Of a DNA stretch of 38,816 bases, positions 701 through 12,752 are shown one piece after another. The notes below the pieces were generated by a model that saw only the letters and a list, made by a program, of their open reading frames with translations, did not search any database and had not been told where the DNA came from. Both the position numbers and the translations under genes were made by a program. This DNA comes from an uncultured Candidatus Woesearchaeota archaeon (lineage in GTDB: Archaea; Nanobdellota; Nanobdellia; Woesearchaeales; 21-14-0-10-32-9), in contig CAITEO010000060.1 of NCBI GenBank assembly GCA_903891505.1, positions 1 through 38,816 on the forward strand, given 5' to 3'. The first letter of the stretch is position 1. Each line of letters begins with the position of its first letter.

Positions 701-1022
701 TCTACCACCCTCCAAAATTTAGTTAGTATAATACTACTAAGTCAAACTTAAATAAGTTAAACTAAACTCTTCATTCACAATATGCTATTTAAAGTTTTCT
801 ATTTTTACTCAACTCAGAAGTAGTTTAAAATAAAACTTCTTTGCTAAAGCACAATAAAAAGTGTTTCTGTTTCGCAAAATTAATTATGCGCTCAACTTAT
901 TACTTCTACGATAACAAAACAAACAATATTACTAAAAACATTGAAAACAATTTGTATTTGAACTTTCACTCCAAAGAGCATAAACATTATAAATGGCCAA
1001 AAAACCCTTATAGATGATACAT

Positions 1023-1137
1023 GAGCCTGTAGCTTAGCCTGGTGGAGCACACGACTGATATATTGACGCAAAGACAATTGATCGAAACGTCAGTTGCTGA
1101 GATCGTGAGGTCCGGAGTTCGAATCTCCGCAGGCTCA
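1023..1137 (+). tRNA. tRNA-Ile(GAT) with a ~41-nt intron at the canonical 37/38 position
   Basis: Acceptor GAGCCTG/CAGGCTC, D-arm, anticodon stem CACGA (1050-1054)/TCGTG (1103-1107), loop CTGATA, T-arm CGGAG-TTCGAAT-CTCCG. Intron ~1061-1101 contains TGACG...CGTCA, compatible with a bulge-helix-bulge. Confidence 0.88.
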
Positions 1138-1138
1138 T
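1121..1138 (+). repeat. attL-like copy (T-arm/acceptor 3' half of tRNA-Ile)
   Basis: GAATCTCCGCAGGCTCAT, identical to 12735-12752. Confidence 0.82.
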
Positions 1139-1184
1139 CCATACCTTTAAGGTACAATTCGCTTAAATTTAAGAAATAAAATAT

Positions 1185-1820: not shown

Positions 1821-2085
1821 TCCCAGCACCTTTGTAACTTGACTATTCCGACAAACCGACCATTATTATTAAGATTATTGTTGCCATTCAGACCATTATA
1901 ATTGTTGTTGAGGAACAGCAAACGGCCCAAAGTTAGCACTTTCACCTATAGTTTGCACCACCACTTCATTGCTGTCGTGGTTGAATTTTATAGCAATTCC
2001 GCTAAGATTGCCTTAGTGAAAGGGCATGTAGTCCAGCTACTCCAAGTTCGCACAAGCTTTGCGGAAAGCTCCTGCTGTGCTGGGA
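1821..2085 (-). ncRNA. Candidate DGR template RNA region containing the TR
   Basis: Non-coding region holding the TR; bracketed by a 9-bp inverted repeat TCCCAGCAC (1821-1829)/GTGCTGGGA (2077-2085). True transcript ends unknown. Confidence 0.5.
1848..1928 (-). repeat. DGR template repeat (TR), 81 bp
   Basis: Minus strand: GGGCCGTTTGCTGTTCCTCAACAACAATTATAATGGTCTGAATGGCAACAATAATCTTAATAATAATGGTCGGTTTGTCGG. 23 adenines, nearly all in AAY codons; aligns ungapped with both VRs. Confidence 0.95.
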
Positions 2086-2126: not shown

Positions 2127-3065
2127 TTATTTTTTGGCGACGTGCGCCTCCGGCGCTACCCCGACAAACCGACCACTATAATTAAGACTATTGAGGCCAT
2201 TCAGACCATTAAAATTGCTGTTGAGGAACAGCAAACGGCCCTGAGACACAGATGGATCAACCTCGCTAAATCTATGATGATTTCCAACTGTTTCATTATC
2301 GCTTTTCTTGGCTTTTTCAAAATAAGAATCAAGATAGTTTAAAGTTCCAGCTCTTGCAAGAACTACTGGATTCTCTATGAATTCTTGTTTTGTGAAATAT
2401 CCTGACTTAGTTGCCTTTGCATCATCAAAATTCATGACGACAGCATATCTGTCAAATGGATTACTAATTCCTTTTTTCAAATCTTCAAGATTATAAATTT
2501 GAATAGTTTCTCCTGTTGGAAGAACTCCTTGCAATAATTTGTCAAACTCGCTATCAGTGTATGTTGCCGCATTTTGCGGGGTCAAGCCAGATTTATATGC
2601 TGTGCTAATTCTCTTTGGTGTCAAAATACCTCCACCATGCACTGTTACAAGAACAGGATCGCCTGCTTTTCTTGCGAAAATTCCTTTTTTATCTATTCCG
2701 ATATTTTCTTCAGTTAATGCTGTGAACCAATATTGCCACAAATAGTTTTCCTTTTCTGCTTGAGCTTTACCCGCGATAAGATAAGGCATTGACGCCACAA
2801 TACCATTTGCATCCGCGTATTTCAATGCTTTTTGGAATGCTATAGGTACGCCTACCCAGTTGCCATTCTTATCTTGTTTATCGCTGTAGAAATATTTACC
2901 ATTGTTAACAAGGTCATCTACGCTAAAACCATTCGAATTGAATGCGACAGCAGTATTACGAGGAATAATTGGTTGATGTTGTATTGGTGCTTGTTGCTGA
3001 GTCGAGTCTTTTTCAGGATTCCACTCCAAATGTTTTATTCTATCAGCAGGAATAATTTTTACCAT
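2127..3065 (-). CDS. DGR-diversified target protein 1 (312 aa, VR at C-terminus)
   Basis: C-terminus QGRLLFLNSNFNGLNGLNSLNYSGRFVGVAPEAHVAKK is encoded by VR1. Paralogous to 5039-5947 (shared start VKIIP.D.I.HLEWNP). No signal peptide seen. Confidence 0.92.
   Translation of the reverse strand: MVKIIPADRIKHLEWNPEKDSTQQQAPIQHQPIIPRNTAVAFNSNGFSVDDLVNNGKYFYSDKQDKNGNWVGVPIAFQKALKYADANGIVASMPYLIAGKAQAEKENYLWQYWFTALTEENIGIDKKGIFARKAGDPVLVTVHGGGILTPKRISTAYKSGLTPQNAATYTDSEFDKLLQGVLPTGETIQIYNLEDLKKGISNPFDRYAVVMNFDDAKATKSGYFTKQEFIENPVVLARAGTLNYLDSYFEKAKKSDNETVGNHHRFSEVDPSVSQGRLLFLNSNFNGLNGLNSLNYSGRFVGVAPEAHVAKK
2161..2241 (-). repeat. DGR variable repeat VR1
   Basis: 81-bp ungapped match to TR with 7 differences, all at TR adenines (3 A>G, 3 A>T, 1 A>C). 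Confidence 0.95.
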
Positions 3066-5026
3066 CTTGACAATAACACCTCTATTCCATCCTGAAGCAT
3101 TTTATTTTTATCATAAACAGGAGTATAAAATATATTAGGATCATTCTTGACTGCTGTACCCAAAGCATATTCGCCTCCGATTTCAAACATCAAAACTTTA
3201 TTGTTAGGATCTTTAGCTAATTTTTTCATTTTCTTAGCTTCTCTTTCAGTTCTTCCCTCAAGAACAAGATTTCCATCTGTAACAACAACATAACTTCTCT
3301 TAAGACCATCGTTAAAATCCTGAATGCATATATCCTCATGACCATATCCGTTCTCTGGCTTAAACAAAGTAGTAAGAGCTTTACCATTTCCTTTTAGGAA
3401 ATCCTCGACAGATATAATCTCTGAGCTCTTCTGAGAATTTGCAAAATTATGAACTCTTAAACTGCACTTCTTATTCAACACTTTTCCACCCTGATAAAGC
3501 GCATCAATGTAACCATAAATAACATTGCTAAGCATATCCCAACTCGAACCATCATTAAAACCAAAGTTATTAGTTTCCCCATACATAGAACCTGAACTAT
3601 CAAGGTAAAATTCTACGATGTCAGGAACATCCATTGTTTCATCTACAAACTTTATATCCTTAATTTCCTTCGTTCTGATTTCATATTCATTCAATCTATA
3701 CTGATGATTTTCTAAAGGAATAAGTACAGGCAAACCAGTTTTTTGTTGGAATCTTGCTACATGTCTAAGATTGATTTTTGATAAATTATCTTCTGTTATA
3801 ACTTCACTTTTTTTCAAATGCCAATATTCTTTATTATCAACAACAACAGATTCGCCAGTTTTGCTTCCGCCAATAATCTTTATGTTTGGATGATTTCTTT
3901 TGTAAAATTCATGAATGGAAAAAACATCAAGTGTATTGTATTCTTCATTTGACTTTGTCCCACTAGAAATACTGCCTGGTTTTCCCATACCCATCTGTGC
4001 CAAGTTCTTATCAGTAGAAAGACTATTTATGAATGCAGATTGTTCGCTTGGGGTCATGTCGTCCAATAAATCCTGTAGAATATTCTGAGGTGAAGTTCCG
4101 CTTCCATCTCCTTGTTGATCAGGTCTTCCCTGAGGCATGTCCTTTTGAACATACGGCCCTAGAACACTCATCAATCTCTCAATGCCCTTGTATCGTCCAT
4201 CGCTCGAGAAAACCTTTCTTATTTCAGATGAATACTCTTGCAACGTATCTAATTCTTTTAATGCACCAGACTTTTTTCCTTTCTTAACTATTTTTGTTGC
4301 TTTTCCAAGCAAAGACAAATCTTCTTTAGGTAAGGGCGTTGTTTTCTGGACAAGCGAACCTAGCGCTTTCTCAGCAACGTTTGCACCATCTTTGCCTGCT
4401 TTCTCCTGAAAAAATGAATAAGTACTTTGAGGACCATAAAGAACGCCATACAAGAATCTTGTTATTGTGTAAAAATTAGTTTTATCGTCAGAGTCCTGTA
4501 ATTCTAGCAAATCCCAAACCGGAATTATATCCTCTTGCACATATTTTCCTTTTTTATTATCTAAATAAAAGCGATTATCTAAAATGAAATCTTTAACTCC
4601 ATTCTGTGATGCATGAACCTTAACTAATTGATCAAGAGGAGTGAGCGCTGGCTCTGCACGTAGCACTCCTTTTCTTATTGCCTGATGGATAAGCTTATTA
4701 TCACTATGATCTCCGTCCACGCTAAAAGGTGCTTCTAGAGGATGATATAATTCATGATTAAGTAAATATTTTAATGTTGCTCTAGCCAAATCATCAGGAG
4801 AGCCCTTCCAATATTTAGTTACAACAGTCTCAAATTTTTTCTTTAAAGAATCATCGTTATTAATTAATGAAAATATTTTGTTTAAATCAGTATAGAACTC
4901 CCAGTCACGATTATTGAGTTTACCTGTTTTTACAACAGGCGTGTCGCTATGTAAAGGAAAGTCTCTACGAACATCTTCTCTCCACTCGTGTTCTGCTTCA
5001 TCCAATAAAACGTGCATGCTTTTCAT
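3059..5026 (-). CDS. VWA-domain protein (MIDAS-containing), partner of the MoxR ATPase
   Basis: C-terminal VEFYLDSSGSMYGETNN (DxSxS MIDAS) ... YVVVTDGNLVLEGRTEREAKKM. Overlaps the start of the VR1 gene. Confidence 0.85.
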   Translation of the reverse strand: MKSMHVLLDEAEHEWREDVRRDFPLHSDTPVVKTGKLNNRDWEFYTDLNKIFSLINNDDSLKKKFETVVTKYWKGSPDDLARATLKYLLNHELYHPLEAPFSVDGDHSDNKLIHQAIRKGVLRAEPALTPLDQLVKVHASQNGVKDFILDNRFYLDNKKGKYVQEDIIPVWDLLELQDSDDKTNFYTITRFLYGVLYGPQSTYSFFQEKAGKDGANVAEKALGSLVQKTTPLPKEDLSLLGKATKIVKKGKKSGALKELDTLQEYSSEIRKVFSSDGRYKGIERLMSVLGPYVQKDMPQGRPDQQGDGSGTSPQNILQDLLDDMTPSEQSAFINSLSTDKNLAQMGMGKPGSISSGTKSNEEYNTLDVFSIHEFYKRNHPNIKIIGGSKTGESVVVDNKEYWHLKKSEVITEDNLSKINLRHVARFQQKTGLPVLIPLENHQYRLNEYEIRTKEIKDIKFVDETMDVPDIVEFYLDSSGSMYGETNNFGFNDGSSWDMLSNVIYGYIDALYQGGKVLNKKCSLRVHNFANSQKSSEIISVEDFLKGNGKALTTLFKPENGYGHEDICIQDFNDGLKRSYVVVTDGNLVLEGRTEREAKKMKKLAKDPNNKVLMFEIGGEYALGTAVKNDPNIFYTPVYDKNKMLQDGIEVLLSRW

Positions 5027-5038
5027 AAATACACCTTA

Positions 5039-5947
5039 TTATTTTTTGGCGACGTGCGCCTCCGGCGCTACCCCGACAAACCGACCATCACTACTAAGAT
5101 TACCGCTGCCATCCAGACCACTACAATTGCCGTTGAGGAACAGCAAACGGCCCTGAGACACAGATGCATCTCTGCCACTAAAAGGATGCCAATTGCCGAG
5201 CGTAGAATCATCAGATTTCTTTGCTAAATCAAAATACGAAGCAAGATTCTCAAGTCCTCCTGCTCTCGCAATAACCAAATCATTATTCAAAAACTCATCC
5301 CGTGTATGATAACCTGACTTCAAAGATTGCATCTTAGTATAATCATTAACAACACCATATCGTCTAGGAAGATTGCTTATTCCTTTCTTGAAATCATCAA
5401 TAAAATATAGCGGAATCTCCTCACCATAGACACTTCCCTTAAGCAAATCTGAAAACTCAAGAGGAACATACTTAGCGCTTCCATTAACGAGGCCTTCTTC
5501 ATACGCCATCCTAATTCTCTGAGGAGTAAGTAAACCTCGCCCGTGCAAAGTTATCAGAACAGCGCCTCCTGGCTTCACATATTTTCCATTAGTATCGATA
5601 CCGATATTTTCCTCTGTCTGGACAGAATACCATTTTTGCCAGAAATCATGAGTTTTATCAGCTTTTATTTTGGTAGCAATAAGTTCAGGCATTGTCGCAA
5701 CAATGCCATCTGTACCTGCATAATCGAGTGCCTGTTGTAACGCATCAGGTAATTTAGCGTCATAAAATATTTGTCCAGTCAAAATAGCCTCAACATCTGC
5801 AGGAAAAATAACATTCGAAGTAGGACTAAAAGATACTGCACTCTGCGTTGCACTTGAAGTACTAGGGAGAACAGACCCTCTATCTGGATTCCACTCAAGG
5901 TGTCTTATTTTATCAGGAGGAATAATTTTTACCAATTTATCCTTCAC
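5039..5947 (-). CDS. DGR-diversified target protein 2 (302 aa, VR at C-terminus)
   Basis: C-terminus QGRLLFLNGNCSGLDGSGNLSSDGRFVGVAPEAHVAKK is encoded by VR2. Start overlaps the end of the MoxR-like ORF by 4 nt. Confidence 0.92.
   Translation of the reverse strand: MKDKLVKIIPPDKIRHLEWNPDRGSVLPSTSSATQSAVSFSPTSNVIFPADVEAILTGQIFYDAKLPDALQQALDYAGTDGIVATMPELIATKIKADKTHDFWQKWYSVQTEENIGIDTNGKYVKPGGAVLITLHGRGLLTPQRIRMAYEEGLVNGSAKYVPLEFSDLLKGSVYGEEIPLYFIDDFKKGISNLPRRYGVVNDYTKMQSLKSGYHTRDEFLNNDLVIARAGGLENLASYFDLAKKSDDSTLGNWHPFSGRDASVSQGRLLFLNGNCSGLDGSGNLSSDGRFVGVAPEAHVAKK
5073..5153 (-). repeat. DGR variable repeat VR2
   Basis: 81-bp ungapped match to TR with 11 differences, all at TR adenines and all A>G. 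Confidence 0.95.
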
Positions 5948-7554
5948 CTCAAAATAGATTCTAATCTATGTTCATAAATGCTACTCTGGCCTTTCTTTTC
6001 ATTATAAAGATCTACAAATGCTTGAAAGCTTCCTTCACCCTGTTTTAGAATCTTCGTTATGTCTGCTTCGAAAGTTTTGCTGAAATGATCTAGCACAACA
6101 AGATCAGCAACAAGACGACTTTTCAATGTACCTTCAGCAGGAGTTGTTGTCTGCGTATTCAATGCATTTATGCTATTTGCTATTGTATTTACGTAACCTG
6201 TGAATCCTTGCTCCTGACCAGCATATACTGCTGCCTGCCAAGTTGCTTGTCTAAAACCATACTCCTCTGGAATATTGTGTGCTTTATGTAAGTCAGTGTA
6301 TGCTTTTCTTGCATCATTAACAAGATTAATTAATTTACCATATTCAGAACCTGTTATGATTTTGCTTTCAAGAACAACACCCATACTTACAGCGACATCA
6401 TTAAGATTAACACTCGGTTCATACGAGCCATTCTTTATGCTCTTAATAAATCCGATAAGTCTTGCGAGATTGCCTATTTTTCCAAGATCTCGACGAACAA
6501 AACCATGCTTCAGCAGATTCTGAGCTTCAATTACTTTATTGTAATTGTTGTCTTTTCTTACACCAAAACGAGCAGTTATTCCGCCTTGTTTAATTAACTC
6601 CGCATTATGTTCAAAAGTCTCAATTGGAGCATGACCGACATAGCCAAGAGCTACATCAATAAATTCTCTGGTTTCTCCGTTTAATTCTACTTGCAGAGAT
6701 TCAGAATCAGTAACAACAGGATAAAACTCTCGCCATCCACCAGTTGTGCCTGCTTTTTTATTGAATGAACTCCAAAATCGGTCATAAAGACCATCTTTAA
6801 CTATTTTATCGAGCTGACTTGATGCAGCTTCATCTACTCCATTTGGAAATCTGAATTTTAAGAATCTATTCTCTCCTGCAATATCAAGTTCTGTTGCAGA
6901 TTTATGCTCTGCATCAGGCGGATTCATTGCGGCAATAACCATCAAATTTTTGTATCTCTGTGGACTCGTACTCAGGATAGGAACTCTCAGGAATCCTTTA
7001 TCTCCATTTATGTGAATTTCGCCATCCACAACTTGTAATACTTCCTGACTATCTCCTCTATTAATTTCATCTATAAACAATGCACCGTATTTAGCGCATT
7101 TCTCATGATCTATTCTTGTCTTTGGAACGCCATTCTCCATTACTGTTTTTGAAAAAGGTTCAAGTGCAGAGTTTCCCATAATTCCTGTGCTAAGTCTTAA
7201 TGTGGTGTATCCATCATTGCCAAATACTGAACTGAATAGTGCATCGCTTGTGTATGTTTTTCCTACTCCTGTGACTCCTTCATAAAGAATGTGAAAATCG
7301 TCGAAAAACAGTGATGCTGCATCAATATCTAGAACTGTAATCTCCGTTGTGTTTGGACGAGGAAGTTCTCCTTTTCCATTGAGGAATTTTACATTTATTT
7401 TATCGCTTTCCTCTATTTCCATATAGGGCGTTGGAGATATTGCTCCGCTAAGTGTTTGATATATTGATTCTATGAAATACTTTCTGAGTTCTTTTTGATT
7501 AGTAGTTTTCATTTTCATCCTCTCTTTTTCTAATGATGTACAAGAGCACATCAC
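5944..7554 (-). CDS. MoxR-like AAA+ ATPase
   Basis: Walker A GVTGVGKT, Walker B ALFIDEINRG, MNPPDAEHKSATELDIAGENRFL. Likely true start is ATG at 7512, preceded by GAGAGG. Confidence 0.85.
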   Translation of the reverse strand: MMCSCTSLEKERMKMKTTNQKELRKYFIESIYQTLSGAISPTPYMEIEESDKINVKFLNGKGELPRPNTTEITVLDIDAASLFFDDFHILYEGVTGVGKTYTSDALFSSVFGNDGYTTLRLSTGIMGNSALEPFSKTVMENGVPKTRIDHEKCAKYGALFIDEINRGDSQEVLQVVDGEIHINGDKGFLRVPILSTSPQRYKNLMVIAAMNPPDAEHKSATELDIAGENRFLKFRFPNGVDEAASSQLDKIVKDGLYDRFWSSFNKKAGTTGGWREFYPVVTDSESLQVELNGETREFIDVALGYVGHAPIETFEHNAELIKQGGITARFGVRKDNNYNKVIEAQNLLKHGFVRRDLGKIGNLARLIGFIKSIKNGSYEPSVNLNDVAVSMGVVLESKIITGSEYGKLINLVNDARKAYTDLHKAHNIPEEYGFRQATWQAAVYAGQEQGFTGYVNTIANSINALNTQTTTPAEGTLKSRLVADLVVLDHFSKTFEADITKILKQGEGSFQAFVDLYNEKKGQSSIYEHRLESILR

Positions 7555-7688: not shown

Positions 7689-9368
7689 ATGAGTCAAAAA
7701 CAGGCAGAAATAACAACATTTGATCAAATCTGCACCTATGACAACATCAGACTTGCCTATGAACGAGCAAGAAAAAGAAAAACTAAAAAAACATATGTAA
7801 TAGAATTTGAACAAAATTTAGATCAAAATATTCGCGAGTTACAAAAAGAACTTATAACAGAAACATATTTTCCAAAACCACTCAAAATATTCATAATCCG
7901 CGAGCCCAAAACTAGAAAGATTAGCAAATCAGAATTTAGAGATAGAGTGATTCATCATGCAATATGCAACATCATAGAGGAAAAATTTGACAAAGCATTT
8001 ATTCATGATAGTTATGCCAATAGAATAGGTAAAGGAACATTAAAAGCAATTAAACGCTTCGATGAGTTCAAAAGAAAAGTTTCAAAAAACAATACAATAG
8101 ATTGTTATTTTCTTAAAGCAGACATAAAACATTATTTCGAAACAGTCAATCACAATATTTTAATAAAAATACTTGAGGATAAAATCAAGGATGAAAAAAC
8201 AATACGCTTGATAAAAATAATTCTTTCTAATCATAAATCTGAGCATGAAGGTAAAGGGATGCCACTTGGAAATCTAACAAGTCAGTTCTTCGCTAATGTT
8301 TATCTAGATAAATTAGATCAATATGTTAAGCACGAACTTAAAATCAAATATTATATTAGATATGTAGATGATTTTATAATTTTAGATCATTCCATAGACA
8401 TTCTCCAAGAATACAAACGAAAAATAAATCATTTTCTTAATGAAGAACTCAAGCTTGAACTTCATCCCGACAAATCGAAAATCTTGCCAATAGAAAGAGG
8501 AGCAAATTTTCTCGGATTCAGAATATTTAATCATCACAGACTAATAAGAAGAAAAAATCTCAAAAAGTTCCAGAGAAAATACAGCAAAATTAAGACGGCA
8601 CATAAAAAAGGTTTAGTATCGAGAGAGAAAATTATAGAGAAGTTCGAAGGCTGGTTAACCTACATAAATCATGCAGACACATATAAATATAGAAGACATT
8701 TAGCGAGAAACTTGAATCAAGATTTTCCACTTGAATGTGAAATAAAACTTGCGAACATAAAAAAACACGAAAATGAAATAAAAAGAACAGATACATTAAA
8801 CTTTCAATATTCTCCACAAAAAACGTTGCGATTATTTAACAATAAACTCACAATCAAACAAATAGCAGAAAAAAGAAGAATAAAAGAATCAACGGTCTAC
8901 GAACACTTGACTAAACTCATCGAATACAACCAATACTCAGTTTGGAAGGTTCTTCAAAAAGAAAAAATCATCAAAATAAGCAGACAAATAATCACGGAAA
9001 ACGACTCGCTAAAAGAAATCAAACAAAGAATAAATGATAATAATCTAACATATAACGAGATAAATTTGGTTTTGGCAAGTATCAAGGCGAGAAACAAAAA
9101 GAAAAATATACTGTTCCACATTAAATGGTATAAAAATAATTATTGCAGAAGAAAATGTTTCTTCGACCAAAAACAAATGCTTGCTTGCGAAGCAAAATTT
9201 AACCAACTAATAAGCAACAACCCTCAACTAAACATAACAAGAAAAGAATTTCTAGACCTATTCAATCACCATATCAAAATATGCACATTGTCAGACAAGA
9301 AAAAAGAAGAATATGTACCTTGGGCTGAATTCAAAGTCAGACTCGCACTAAACAAAAAAACGCGATAA
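7689..9368 (+). CDS. DGR-type reverse transcriptase with C-terminal HTH-like extension (559 aa)
   Basis: RT motifs FLKADIKHYFETV, GMPLGNLTSQFFANVYLDKLD (SQ variant of domain 4), IRYVDDFIIL, ANFLGFRI. Extension contains TIKQIAEKRRIKESTVYEHLTKL and LKEIKQRINDNNLTYNEINLVLASIK. Confidence 0.93.
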   Translation: MSQKQAEITTFDQICTYDNIRLAYERARKRKTKKTYVIEFEQNLDQNIRELQKELITETYFPKPLKIFIIREPKTRKISKSEFRDRVIHHAICNIIEEKFDKAFIHDSYANRIGKGTLKAIKRFDEFKRKVSKNNTIDCYFLKADIKHYFETVNHNILIKILEDKIKDEKTIRLIKIILSNHKSEHEGKGMPLGNLTSQFFANVYLDKLDQYVKHELKIKYYIRYVDDFIILDHSIDILQEYKRKINHFLNEELKLELHPDKSKILPIERGANFLGFRIFNHHRLIRRKNLKKFQRKYSKIKTAHKKGLVSREKIIEKFEGWLTYINHADTYKYRRHLARNLNQDFPLECEIKLANIKKHENEIKRTDTLNFQYSPQKTLRLFNNKLTIKQIAEKRRIKESTVYEHLTKLIEYNQYSVWKVLQKEKIIKISRQIITENDSLKEIKQRINDNNLTYNEINLVLASIKARNKKKNILFHIKWYKNNYCRRKCFFDQKQMLACEAKFNQLISNNPQLNITRKEFLDLFNHHIKICTLSDKKKEEYVPWAEFKVRLALNKKTR

Positions 9369-9415
9369 TCCTTAAGTGTATTACAAACTCCGAGTCGATT
9401 ATATTAATCTTGGGA

Positions 9416-9437
9416 GCCTTCGCAATAGTACGGAGGC
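9416..9437 (+). promoter_or_regulatory. 5'-UTR hairpin covering the Shine-Dalgarno of the recombinase gene
   Basis: GCCTTCG (9416-9422)/CGGAGGC (9431-9437), 7 pairs including one G-U, loop CAATAGTA; GGAGG lies in the 3' arm, just upstream of ATG 9446. Confidence 0.4.
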
Positions 9438-9445
9438 GATACACA

Positions 9446-10006
9446 ATGGTATTTGAATACAAAAGAGAACCCTTAGAAGAAAACGAAATACTAGCCCTAC
9501 GAAAAGCATGCACCACATTCGAGGAAGAACTCATCATAAACGTTCTTCTCGAGACGGGTATGAGAGTCTCGGAATTCGCCAAACTTAGCGACGAAGAGAT
9601 CAGCTGGCAACGAAACTGCATAACCACCATCGGCAAAGGAAACAAAAGACGAGTAATCCCTCTAAGCAAAACCGCACGATTCTATCTAACAGAGTATTTT
9701 AAGGACAACCACAAAATCCATCTAAGCCCTAGAATTATTCAGATGCGTTTAAAGTTTGTTGCTGATAGAGCTCGCATAAAAAAGCCCGTAACACCCCACG
9801 TTTTAAGGCATACTTTCGCTGTATGTTACTTGCATCGTGGTGGAAATGTAAGGGCGTTGCAAGGTATTCTTGGCCACAGTAGCCTCATAACAACCGACGT
9901 TTACCTAAACTACTCAGGTCAGAGAGTTATTGAGGATTTCCAGAAAATATGGGAACAAAAACCAGAACCAAAGCGCGATAACAGCTTGTTAAACTATCTA
10001 GGGTAA
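9446..10006 (+). CDS. Tyrosine recombinase (catalytic domain only)
   Basis: ETGMRVSE, HVLRHTFA, LGHSS, TDVYLNY; start ATG 9446 after GGAGG (ORF track begins at a TTG, 9410). Confidence 0.85.
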   Translation: MVFEYKREPLEENEILALRKACTTFEEELIINVLLETGMRVSEFAKLSDEEISWQRNCITTIGKGNKRRVIPLSKTARFYLTEYFKDNHKIHLSPRIIQMRLKFVADRARIKKPVTPHVLRHTFAVCYLHRGGNVRALQGILGHSSLITTDVYLNYSGQRVIEDFQKIWEQKPEPKRDNSLLNYLG

Positions 10007-11381: not shown

Positions 11382-12215
11382 TCAAAATAGATTTTGGTTC
11401 TTGCTTAACTCAGTTATTATATTCATTTTTTCTAATAATTCATCATGACTTATATCTCCACTTGCAAATCTTAACTTTAAAACTTCTATTGGATCTGATA
11501 ACTGCGCTGTAGCCAAATTAGCGCTTCTTACGTTGGTATCTTTTTTTCCAACGAATGCTTTCTCTATTTTTTGTTGCAAGTCTTTTTGGCTTACGTATGC
11601 GTAGATTTGTGTTGTGTAGATATCGCTGTGTCCTAGGCTTCGCTGGATGTAATACAAATCAACACCACGTTCCAACAAATAGGTTGCATAAGTATGTCGT
11701 AGCGTGTGAAAGCTATACAAGTGTCTTTGTTGTTCATTCTTAGTTTTCTTCCAATCCAATAACAATCCTGCTTTTTCAAGATACGCTCTGAATTTCAACG
11801 AGATATAATTTGGACTCACGCCATCACTTGCTGTTGTAGGGATGAAGAACTCTGATTCTGAGACTCGAAACCATTTCTCAATTAATGGTTTGAGGCTTGA
11901 TGGCAACATCACATATCTGTCCTTGCAACCTTTGCCCTGAACAATTTTAATCTTGCAATCAACCAAGTCGACATCTTGTCTTTTGAGCTGACAAACTTCG
12001 CTAATACGCAGACCACAAAACAAAGCCAGCAAGCACGCCAAGAAAATATCAGTCTCATCAATTACTGTGAATAACTCGATTAATTGCTTTTTGTTAAAAA
12101 CATTTGGCAAACTTCGGTTCTTGCCCTCATTTTGGTTTTTTCCTCTACGATTTGAGTGTTTCATTTTTACATTCCTCTCACTAATTGCATGCCTTGTAAT
12201 TTTATGCTTATGCAC
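11382..12215 (-). CDS. Tyrosine recombinase/integrase (XerA/C-like), probable integrase of the element
   Basis: CGLRISEVCQL, YSFHTLRHTYATYLLERGVD, LGHSDIYTTQIYAYV. Adjacent to attR. Confidence 0.88.
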   Translation of the reverse strand: MHKHKITRHAISERNVKMKHSNRRGKNQNEGKNRSLPNVFNKKQLIELFTVIDETDIFLACLLALFCGLRISEVCQLKRQDVDLVDCKIKIVQGKGCKDRYVMLPSSLKPLIEKWFRVSESEFFIPTTASDGVSPNYISLKFRAYLEKAGLLLDWKKTKNEQQRHLYSFHTLRHTYATYLLERGVDLYYIQRSLGHSDIYTTQIYAYVSQKDLQQKIEKAFVGKKDTNVRSANLATAQLSDPIEVLKLRFASGDISHDELLEKMNIITELSKNQNLF

Positions 12216-12559
12216 GCATGGCTGTTGGTTTCGTGTCGGCTTTTGAAGTGCGTATTTAACGCGGTTTTTTGGCTAATTGTGCCCTCTTTGAGTTGAAATC
12301 GTAGTGTTTCAGGTACTCTCTCAAGAAGGCACCACCTGTAAACTTTGTACGGATTGTGTCCGTTCTCAATTAAGAAATTGTATAATTCTCTATCTTTGCC
12401 TAGAAGAATTGATTTCTTTTTGTTGTAATGATATTGTGCAAGCATTCCTATTTTTTGGTGGAAATTGCGAAAATATTCCTCACCAAAACGAACACTCACT
12501 TCTTTCTTTATAGACTCATAATCAATGAGCCAAGTCTTCCGAACAATTTTATCTTTCAC
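12167..12559 (-). CDS. Small ORF upstream of and overlapping the integrase; possible separate DNA-binding/core-binding part
   Basis: 130 aa, same strand, overlaps integrase ORF 11382-12215 by 49 nt; preceded by a shared promoter motif. Confidence 0.55.
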   Translation of the reverse strand: MKDKIVRKTWLIDYESIKKEVSVRFGEEYFRNFHQKIGMLAQYHYNKKKSILLGKDRELYNFLIENGHNPYKVYRWCLLERVPETLRFQLKEGTISQKTALNTHFKSRHETNSHACISIKLQGMQLVRGM

Positions 12560-12734: not shown

Positions 12735-12752
12735 GAATCTCCGCAGGCTCAT
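12735..12752 (+). repeat. attR-like copy (orphan tRNA-Ile 3' end)
   Basis: GAATCTCCGCAGGCTCAT with no tRNA body upstream. Confidence 0.82.

What the first reader, a model, noticed from the sequence alone, without database searches (positions are those of the whole stretch)
2127..7554. MoxR ATPase - VR protein - VWA protein - VR protein operon: a diversified AAA+/VWA system
Four minus-strand genes are nearly contiguous: MoxR end/VR2-protein start overlap 4 nt, VR2-protein end to VWA start is 12 nt, and VWA end overlaps the VR1-protein start. MoxR and VWA proteins commonly act as a chaperone or remodelling pair, and vWA-MoxR modules have been proposed as biological-conflict systems. Here two cytosolic-looking paralogues (no signal peptide seen) with hypervariable C-termini are built into that module. 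Inference: the DGR supplies interchangeable recognition subunits to a MoxR/VWA machine, such as an intracellular sensor of invaders or partners, rather than a surface adhesin.
Basis: partly seen in the sequence, partly recalled or inferred. Interest (0 to 1): 0.93.

Follow-up and report, generated by a model that had tools for sequence, protein, structure and literature searches.

The report
Tail-docked hypermutating heads on AAA+/vWA machine
A mobile DNA island in a tiny symbiont-type archaeon makes two rapidly self-mutating binding proteins that share a short N-terminal tag with other, unrelated binding proteins of the same ATP-driven protein machine, so the machine appears to be a platform onto which changeable recognition heads are plugged.

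Summary
A minus-strand operon, MoxR–VR2–VWA–VR1, lies beside a genuine diversity-generating retroelement (DGR): all 22 template/variable-repeat mismatches are at template adenines. The four genes, the DGR, two tyrosine recombinases and a membrane protein sit in an 11.6-kb island flanked by an 18-bp repeat of a tRNA-Ile 3' end. The linkage is conserved: in 16 non-redundant DPANN loci every readable MoxR operon encodes tailed proteins, and 11 of 12 testable operons have the VWA gene.

(1) Both VR proteins carry the same ~20-residue N-terminal tail, which recurs on unrelated heads beside the same machine and changes with machine type rather than head lineage. (2) The VWA protein has an HExxH motif upstream of its vWA domain in three non-alignable machine types. 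(3) The cassette moves as a unit, including in tailed viruses between portal and capsid genes.

Best reading: a tail-docked, DGR-diversified sensor array on a MoxR/vWA, possibly protease, machine. Binding, proteolysis and a conflict role remain inference. Related bacterial MoxR–vWA–DGR conflict systems are known, so this is a new variant; [quoted passage not shown]

The parts
1022..1141 (+). tRNA-Ile(GAT) gene with a 41-nt intron; integration site
   Evidence: ARAGORN with introns allowed; the default scan without introns missed it
1121..1138 (+). att-like 18-bp repeat GAATCTCCGCAGGCTCAT at the tRNA 3' end (left end of island)
   Evidence: exact direct repeat with 12735-12752
1843..1928 (-). 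DGR template repeat (TR)
   Evidence: 90% / 85% identical to the two VRs; all 22 mismatches at TR adenines
2127..3065 (-). VR1 protein: AvpA-like C-type-lectin DGR target, class A body
2156..2241 (-). variable repeat of VR1 protein (9 A-site substitutions)
3006..3065 (-). N-terminal tail of VR1 protein (MVKIIPADRIKHLEWNPEKD)
3059..5026 (-). VWA protein: N-terminal helical domain with HExxH, C-terminal vWA with MIDAS
4742..4756 (-). HELYH (HExxH) motif, residues 91-95 of the VWA protein, invariant in 10 homologues
3587..3601 (-). MIDAS motif DSSGS, residues 476-480 of the VWA protein
5039..5947 (-). VR2 protein: AvpA-like C-type-lectin DGR target, class B body
5068..5153 (-). variable repeat of VR2 protein (13 A-site substitutions, all A to G)
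5876..5947 (-). N-terminal tail of VR2 protein (MKDKLVKIIPPDKIRHLEWNPDRG)
5944..7554 (-). MoxR-type AAA+ ATPase
   Evidence: weak AAA_5 hit; conserved Walker A/B and sensor motifs, 55-64% identity across loci
7689..9368 (+). DGR reverse transcriptase with C-terminal HTH_40 domain
9410..10006 (+). tyrosine recombinase (Xer-type) int1
   Evidence: Phage_integrase 3.6e-27; 70% identical homologues beside RT in L058 and L059
10010..11236 (+). membrane protein of the element
   Evidence: weak transporter-like Pfam hits only; also after int1 in L059
11382..12559 (-). tyrosine recombinase int2 (11382-12215) and the ORF upstream of it (12167-12559)
   Evidence: Phage_integrase 2.3e-28; 58% identical homologue in L058
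12735..12752 (+). att-like 18-bp repeat (right end of island)

Best explanation
SHOWN: an 11.6-kb element flanked by an att-like repeat in a tRNA-Ile gene carries a DGR whose two targets are cytosolic-looking AvpA-fold proteins, co-encoded with a MoxR AAA+ ATPase and a vWA protein that has an upstream HExxH motif. Both targets begin with the same short tail, which is specific to the machine type and separable from the head. INFERRED: the tail docks each head on the MoxR/vWA complex (through the vWA MIDAS, the N-terminal domain, or the AAA+ pore), and the proline-rich linker lets the lectin head sample ligands. The RT keeps rewriting the ligand face of both heads from one template. Ligand binding by a head makes MoxR remodel the vWA protein, as NorQ twists NorD, and so switches on the output. 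The output is either the HExxH domain acting as a protease, or remodelling of the captured protein. No other conserved gene in the operon could serve as effector. The likeliest use is recognition of changing foreign proteins inside the cell, in conflicts among mobile elements, viruses and hosts. Likelihoods: tail-docked heads on a MoxR/vWA machine about 0.7; sensor array with the machine as output about 0.5; HExxH domain as active protease about 0.45; anti-element or anti-virus role about 0.35.
For: Linkage: the same operon is found in DPANN MAGs of several families and in one IMG/VR contig. Tail: it is shared by paralogues whose bodies are 48-55% identical and by heads with no detectable body similarity (window vs L077, L080; L086 vs L076). 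Among 292 whole genomes the tail DNA pattern occurs 6 times, always at the start of a VR gene in this operon, two per locus. Body lineages A and B each occur with tail type 1 and tail type 3, and well-supported branches force at least two changes of tail for each type. Three non-alignable MoxR/vWA pairs show the same layout, and their vWA proteins all have HExxH, [DE][DF][IV]xDN and MIDAS. DGR activity: 269 of 278 TR/VR mismatches over 22 VRs in 10 loci are at TR adenines (sum). Two viral cassettes that are 95-97% identical outside the VR genes differ in their VRs at 13/27 TR-A positions each, against 1/59 and 3/59 elsewhere. Fold: AvpA 5ioo at 2.5e-17 by sequence and 6.3e-10 by structure; the alignment starts at profile position 69, so AvpA lacks the tail. 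Precedent for the mechanics: NorQD (PMC13036017).
Against: There is no physical, biochemical or expression evidence. The vWA model is of modest confidence (pLDDT 63) and its N-terminal part matches no known metallopeptidase; Pfam gives only a sub-threshold M48 hit (0.03), and only for one machine type. Viral copies lie between portal and capsid genes, where a virion role is possible. One locus (L081 = L053) keeps MoxR and a VR gene without VWA or RT. A PADLOC scan finds no known defence family apart from generic RT-type models.
Confidence: 0.5

Rival explanations
1. Maturation or delivery machine: MoxR/vWA are dedicated chaperones that fold, assemble or release the VR proteins, and the tail is a chaperone-binding or leader peptide, perhaps cut off by the HExxH domain. 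The VR proteins then act elsewhere, for example on the cell surface, in a partner cell or on a virion.
For: Known MoxR/vWA pairs are maturation factors (NorQD, RavA-ViaA, CbbQO; papers found). A conserved tail followed by a proline-rich linker would suit a leader. Archaeal viruses carry MoxR/vWA pairs, and for Acidianus two-tailed virus a chaperone role is reported (cited in PMC7911831).
Against: AvpA-like DGR targets also occur without the machine, as in L060-L062 and L040, so the fold does not need it. The tailed proteins have no signal peptide or membrane segment.
Confidence: 0.25
2. Virion or host-attachment module: the cassette makes variable receptor-binding proteins for tailed viruses, and the chromosomal copies are remnants or domesticated versions.
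For: In L086, L073 and L088 the cassette lies between portal/terminase and scaffold/capsid genes. In L040, a virus 97-98% identical to L073 in its structural genes, the same place holds a single-target DGR.
Against: The operon runs opposite to the structural genes and moves between viral backbones as a unit: cassette 95% against flanks 70-73% in L073 vs L088. Most loci are non-viral, and the window copy has recombinases but no recognised structural genes. It carries an ATPase and a vWA protein, which attachment proteins do not usually need.
Confidence: 0.12
3. Coincidence: the DGR and the MoxR/vWA pair are independent cargo that happen to be neighbours.
For: Both travel on mobile elements, and AvpA-like DGRs also occur alone.
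Against: Overlapping genes in an alternating order, the same order in unrelated mobile contexts and in three non-alignable MoxR/vWA types, and tails that follow the machine type rather than the head.
Confidence: 0.02

Closest known systems
VMAP and other MoxR-vWA ternary conflict systems with DGRs (Kaur et al. 2020, PMC7159879; Dore et al. 2024, PMC10907252)
   Same: MoxR + vWA + DGR-diversified C-type-lectin domain in one locus; proposed as NTP-dependent conflict systems with hypervariable sensors or effectors.
   Different: Those are in mostly multicellular bacteria, with the lectin often fused to the vWA protein and a VMAP or other third component. Here there is no VMAP and no fusion; heads are separate AvpA-type proteins joined by a shared tail; the vWA protein has its own HExxH motif; hosts are DPANN archaea and their mobile elements. 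Dore et al. [quoted passage not shown] RT clade membership was not tested here.
AvpA-type archaeal DGR targets (Handa et al. 2016, PMC5006420)
   Same: Same C-type-lectin subclass, with RFxGV at the end of the variable region.
   Different: AvpA has no N-terminal tail. The stand-alone AvpA-like proteins seen here lack the tail and carry a C-terminal extension instead.
MoxR/vWA pairs with one fixed target: NorQ/NorD, RavA/ViaA, CbbQ/CbbO (PMC13036017 and others)
   Same: MoxR AAA+ with a vWA-MIDAS partner in one operon.
   Different: These act on fixed metabolic targets; none has hypermutated clients sharing an N-terminal tail, to my knowledge.
MoxR/vWA pairs of archaeal viruses: ATV p618/p892, haloarchaeal siphoviruses, Hardycor1 (PMC7911831)
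   Same: AAA ATPase + vWA-MIDAS genes carried by archaeal viruses.
   Different: The passages read report no DGR at those loci; sequence relationship was not tested here.

Membership tests
Diversity-generating retroelement | DGR-type RT with adjacent TR and VR, and VR changes confined to TR adenines | tested here: met
   22/22 in the window; 269/278 over 10 loci; RVT_1 hit and GNLTSQ motif
Diversity-generating retroelement | Avd or other accessory protein | tested here: inconclusive
   No Avd hit among the proteins scanned; the RT carries a C-terminal HTH_40 domain that might replace it
AvpA-type C-type-lectin target | Homology and fold match to AvpA | tested here: met
   5ioo E 2.5e-17 by profile; Foldseek 6.3e-10, TM 0.74 on the target
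MoxR AAA+ / vWA pair | AAA+ with MoxR-type motifs next to a vWA protein with MIDAS | tested here: met
   AAA_5 only below the curated cut-off, motifs invariant; vWA fold and DSSGS MIDAS; AAA_5 above cut-off in machine types 2 and 3
VMAP ternary conflict system | VMAP protein as third conserved component | tested here: not met
   Beyond MoxR, vWA and tailed proteins no gene recurs in the operon; sequence-level check only
VMAP ternary conflict system | DGR-diversified lectin fused to the vWA protein | tested here: not met
   Heads are separate genes in every locus read
Zinc metallopeptidase | HExxH plus third ligand | tested here: met
   HExxH and a [DE][DF][IV]xDN motif 40-59 residues on, in all 13 sequences and three machine types; the ligand role of the latter is inferred
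Zinc metallopeptidase | Zincin fold | tested here: inconclusive
   Model helical there but of low confidence; no PDB match for that part; Pfam M48 0.03 for type 3 only
tRNA-integrated mobile element | Integrase, tRNA target and flanking direct repeat | tested here: met
   Two tyrosine recombinases, tRNA-Ile and 18-bp repeat 1121/12735; excision not tested
Anti-virus defence system | Protection against infection | not testable with these tools
   PADLOC finds only generic RT-type matches

The most novel reading that the evidence does not exclude
DPANN archaea and their viruses share a plug-in platform: a MoxR AAA+ ATPase with an HExxH-vWA protein recruits several clients through a locus-specific N-terminal tail. 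The clients include DGR-diversified AvpA-type heads, other lectin-type DGR heads, apparently repeat-built heads, and in some loci non-DGR proteins. The result would be an immune-receptor-like array whose specificity module is swappable and self-mutating.
Probability: 0.5. Interest if true: 0.88.

Novelty: new variant of a known kind. Interest (0 to 1): 0.8.

Why it matters
What cellular and archaeal DGR targets do is an open question, and targets without a recognisable domain, such as the archaeal ones, have had no assigned partner. Here they have a partner machine and a short, testable docking tag. If right, it extends DGR-diversified AAA+ systems from multicellular bacteria to ultra-small archaea and their viruses, runs against a published statement that clade 5F CPR/DPANN DGRs lack conflict-system partners, and gives a simple experiment (a tail-only fusion) to test it.

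Tried and rejected
A single-sequence VR scan of viral contigs found nothing; alignment queries then found one contig. hhalign of vWA type 1 against types 2 and 3 is not significant, so the three machine types are called non-alignable, not shown to be unrelated. L073 and L074 are identical, so they give no population variation. Searches of same-genus and same-family genomes for an empty site were uninformative. Named phages hold no relative of the VWA or VR2 protein. A plain surface-adhesin reading was set aside for lack of any signal or membrane segment. A shared tail through recent duplication alone was rejected because tails cross body lineages A and B and unrelated heads; it remains possible for same-class pairs such as L073a/b and L057a-c. 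Tail p-values are bounded by 20,000 random between-locus pairs, and that null contains a few true homologues.

Full report
OBSERVATION. The TR at 1843-1928 pairs with both VRs, and every one of the 22 mismatches is at a TR adenine. The RT lies divergently at 7689-9368 and has a C-terminal HTH_40 domain.

IDENTITIES. Pfam and NCBIfam give nothing useful for the VR and VWA proteins. A profile of 13 VR homologues finds AvpA, the solved archaeal DGR target, at 2.5e-17; the predicted structure (mean pLDDT 64) finds the same entry at 6.3e-10 with TM 0.74. The model of the VWA protein (pLDDT 63) matches mostly vWA/integrin I domains in the PDB list. Its N-terminal helical part holds an invariant HELYH and, 59 residues on in most members, DFILDN. 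The non-alignable VWA proteins of two other machine types (L057; L058/L059) have HESSH...EDILDN and HEFGH...DDVNDN. A metallopeptidase-like domain is therefore likely but not proven.

A MOBILE ISLAND. ARAGORN with introns finds tRNA-Ile at 1022-1141. An exact 18-bp copy of its 3' end recurs at 12735-12752. Between them lie TR, the four genes, RT, two Xer-type recombinases and a membrane protein. Related recombinases also sit beside the RT in G176 (L058, L059), which has a different MoxR/VWA pair, and a relative of the membrane protein follows int1 in L059.

CONSERVED LINKAGE. VR relatives occur in 38 of 292 genomes of the order. A MoxR-alignment scan of 85,462 species found 15 loci, nearly all in Woesearchaeota/Nanoarchaeota MAGs, and IMG/VR gave one contig. 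After removing duplicates and adding the window there are 16 loci. L078 is cut off after MoxR. In all other 15 a tailed protein is in the operon, and in 14 it is immediately downstream of MoxR; L082 has VWA between. The tails of L083 and L087 are divergent. The VWA gene is present in 11 of the 12 loci with enough sequence; L081 lacks it (counts made by reading that table).

THE TAIL. Both tailed proteins of a locus begin alike, e.g. MTRIIPRELIKHLEWxPGQ, even where the bodies are about 50% identical. In L077 and L080 the tail sits on a different DGR-diversified lectin-like head, and in L076, L082 and L087 on further heads without detectable similarity to VR1/VR2. In L083 a divergent tail precedes near-identical tandem repeats that look like a beta-propeller. 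Machine types 2 and 3 have other tails (MSRDELSEYEKAIL..., MKSKQDYLRMLFGEP...) on AvpA-type bodies that still align with the window's. Stand-alone AvpA-like proteins have none. A body tree separates classes A and B; tail types 1 and 3 each occur in both classes. Over 292 whole genomes the type-1 tail DNA pattern hits only six places, all in this operon. Relatives of the type-3 VWA protein occur in 36 of 292 genomes, and some of their operons also have proteins sharing a tail: L119 has three whose bodies are at background similarity, L115 several. The tail principle therefore may extend beyond DGR targets.

ACTIVITY AND MOVEMENT. Over 22 VRs in 10 loci, 269 of 278 TR/VR mismatches are at TR adenines (sum). 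Three viral loci (L086, L073, L088) carry the cassette between portal/terminase and scaffold/capsid genes. L073 and L040 share flanks at 97-98% but hold different DGR cassettes; L073 and L088 share the cassette at 95% but flanks only at 70-73%. So the cassette recombines as a unit. The VRs of L073 and L088 differ at 13 of 27 TR-A positions each but at 1 and 3 of 59 others; their TRs differ at one position. Two further loci (L077, L080) lie beside T4SS-type genes. Host assignment of the viral contigs is uncertain: the identical L073/L074 sequence is binned in a Woesearchaeota and a Cloacimonadota MAG.

MECHANISM. Shown: gene order, DGR activity signature, shared separable tail, fold of heads and vWA, mobility. 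Inferred: the tail docks heads on the machine; the linker-borne heads bind ligand; MoxR remodels the vWA protein (NorQD precedent, PMC13036017); the HExxH domain or remodelling itself is the output. A role in conflict is the most economical use of a self-mutating cytosolic recogniser on mobile elements, but is not tested.

KNOWN OR NEW. Kaur et al. 2020 and Dore et al. 2024 describe DGR-diversified lectins in bacterial MoxR-vWA systems. This differs in host, in having separate tail-docked heads, in the HExxH-vWA protein and in lacking a VMAP. Dore et al. [quoted passage not shown] clade membership of this RT was not tested. No paper found in the held library describes this arrangement, but most subscription papers are not held.

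Noticed in passing
L119:3675-6791 and L115:2880-12445: In relatives of the type-3 machine several non-DGR proteins share a locus-specific N-terminal tail (MTIIPPxNIxEEKKQQILEEL; xGIEKREKKE); in L119 the bodies are at background similarity.
   Followed up: partly
L083:11533-12264: The gene after MoxR encodes a divergent tail followed by near-identical tandem repeats (LCSHNGKLYDGG...), possibly a beta-propeller head varied by repeat recombination.
   Followed up: no
L088:15307-15392: The second VR of this viral cassette has an in-frame stop codon, as blind mutagenesis would sometimes produce.
   Followed up: no
window:5068-5153: All 13 substitutions in this VR are A to G, whereas the other VR also has A to T and A to C.
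   Followed up: no
L073 / L074: An identical 21.6-kb viral stretch is binned in a Woesearchaeota and a Cloacimonadota MAG from the same lake series, so binning, and with it the virus host, is uncertain.
   Followed up: partly
L073:9436-9699, L086:9406-9681, L040:9286-9549: A small conserved gene lies between RT and MoxR (or the single VR gene) in the viral cassettes; it looks AbrB-like by eye but Pfam does not confirm it.
   Followed up: no
L040, L060, L061, L062: Stand-alone AvpA-like DGR targets have no N-terminal tail but carry an extension after the variable region, perhaps a C-terminal docking element.
   Followed up: no
L077:4087-8165 and L080:3823-8239: T4SS pilin and TraG/VirB4-like ATPase genes directly beside the RT suggest a conjugative-type element carrying the cassette.
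   Followed up: partly
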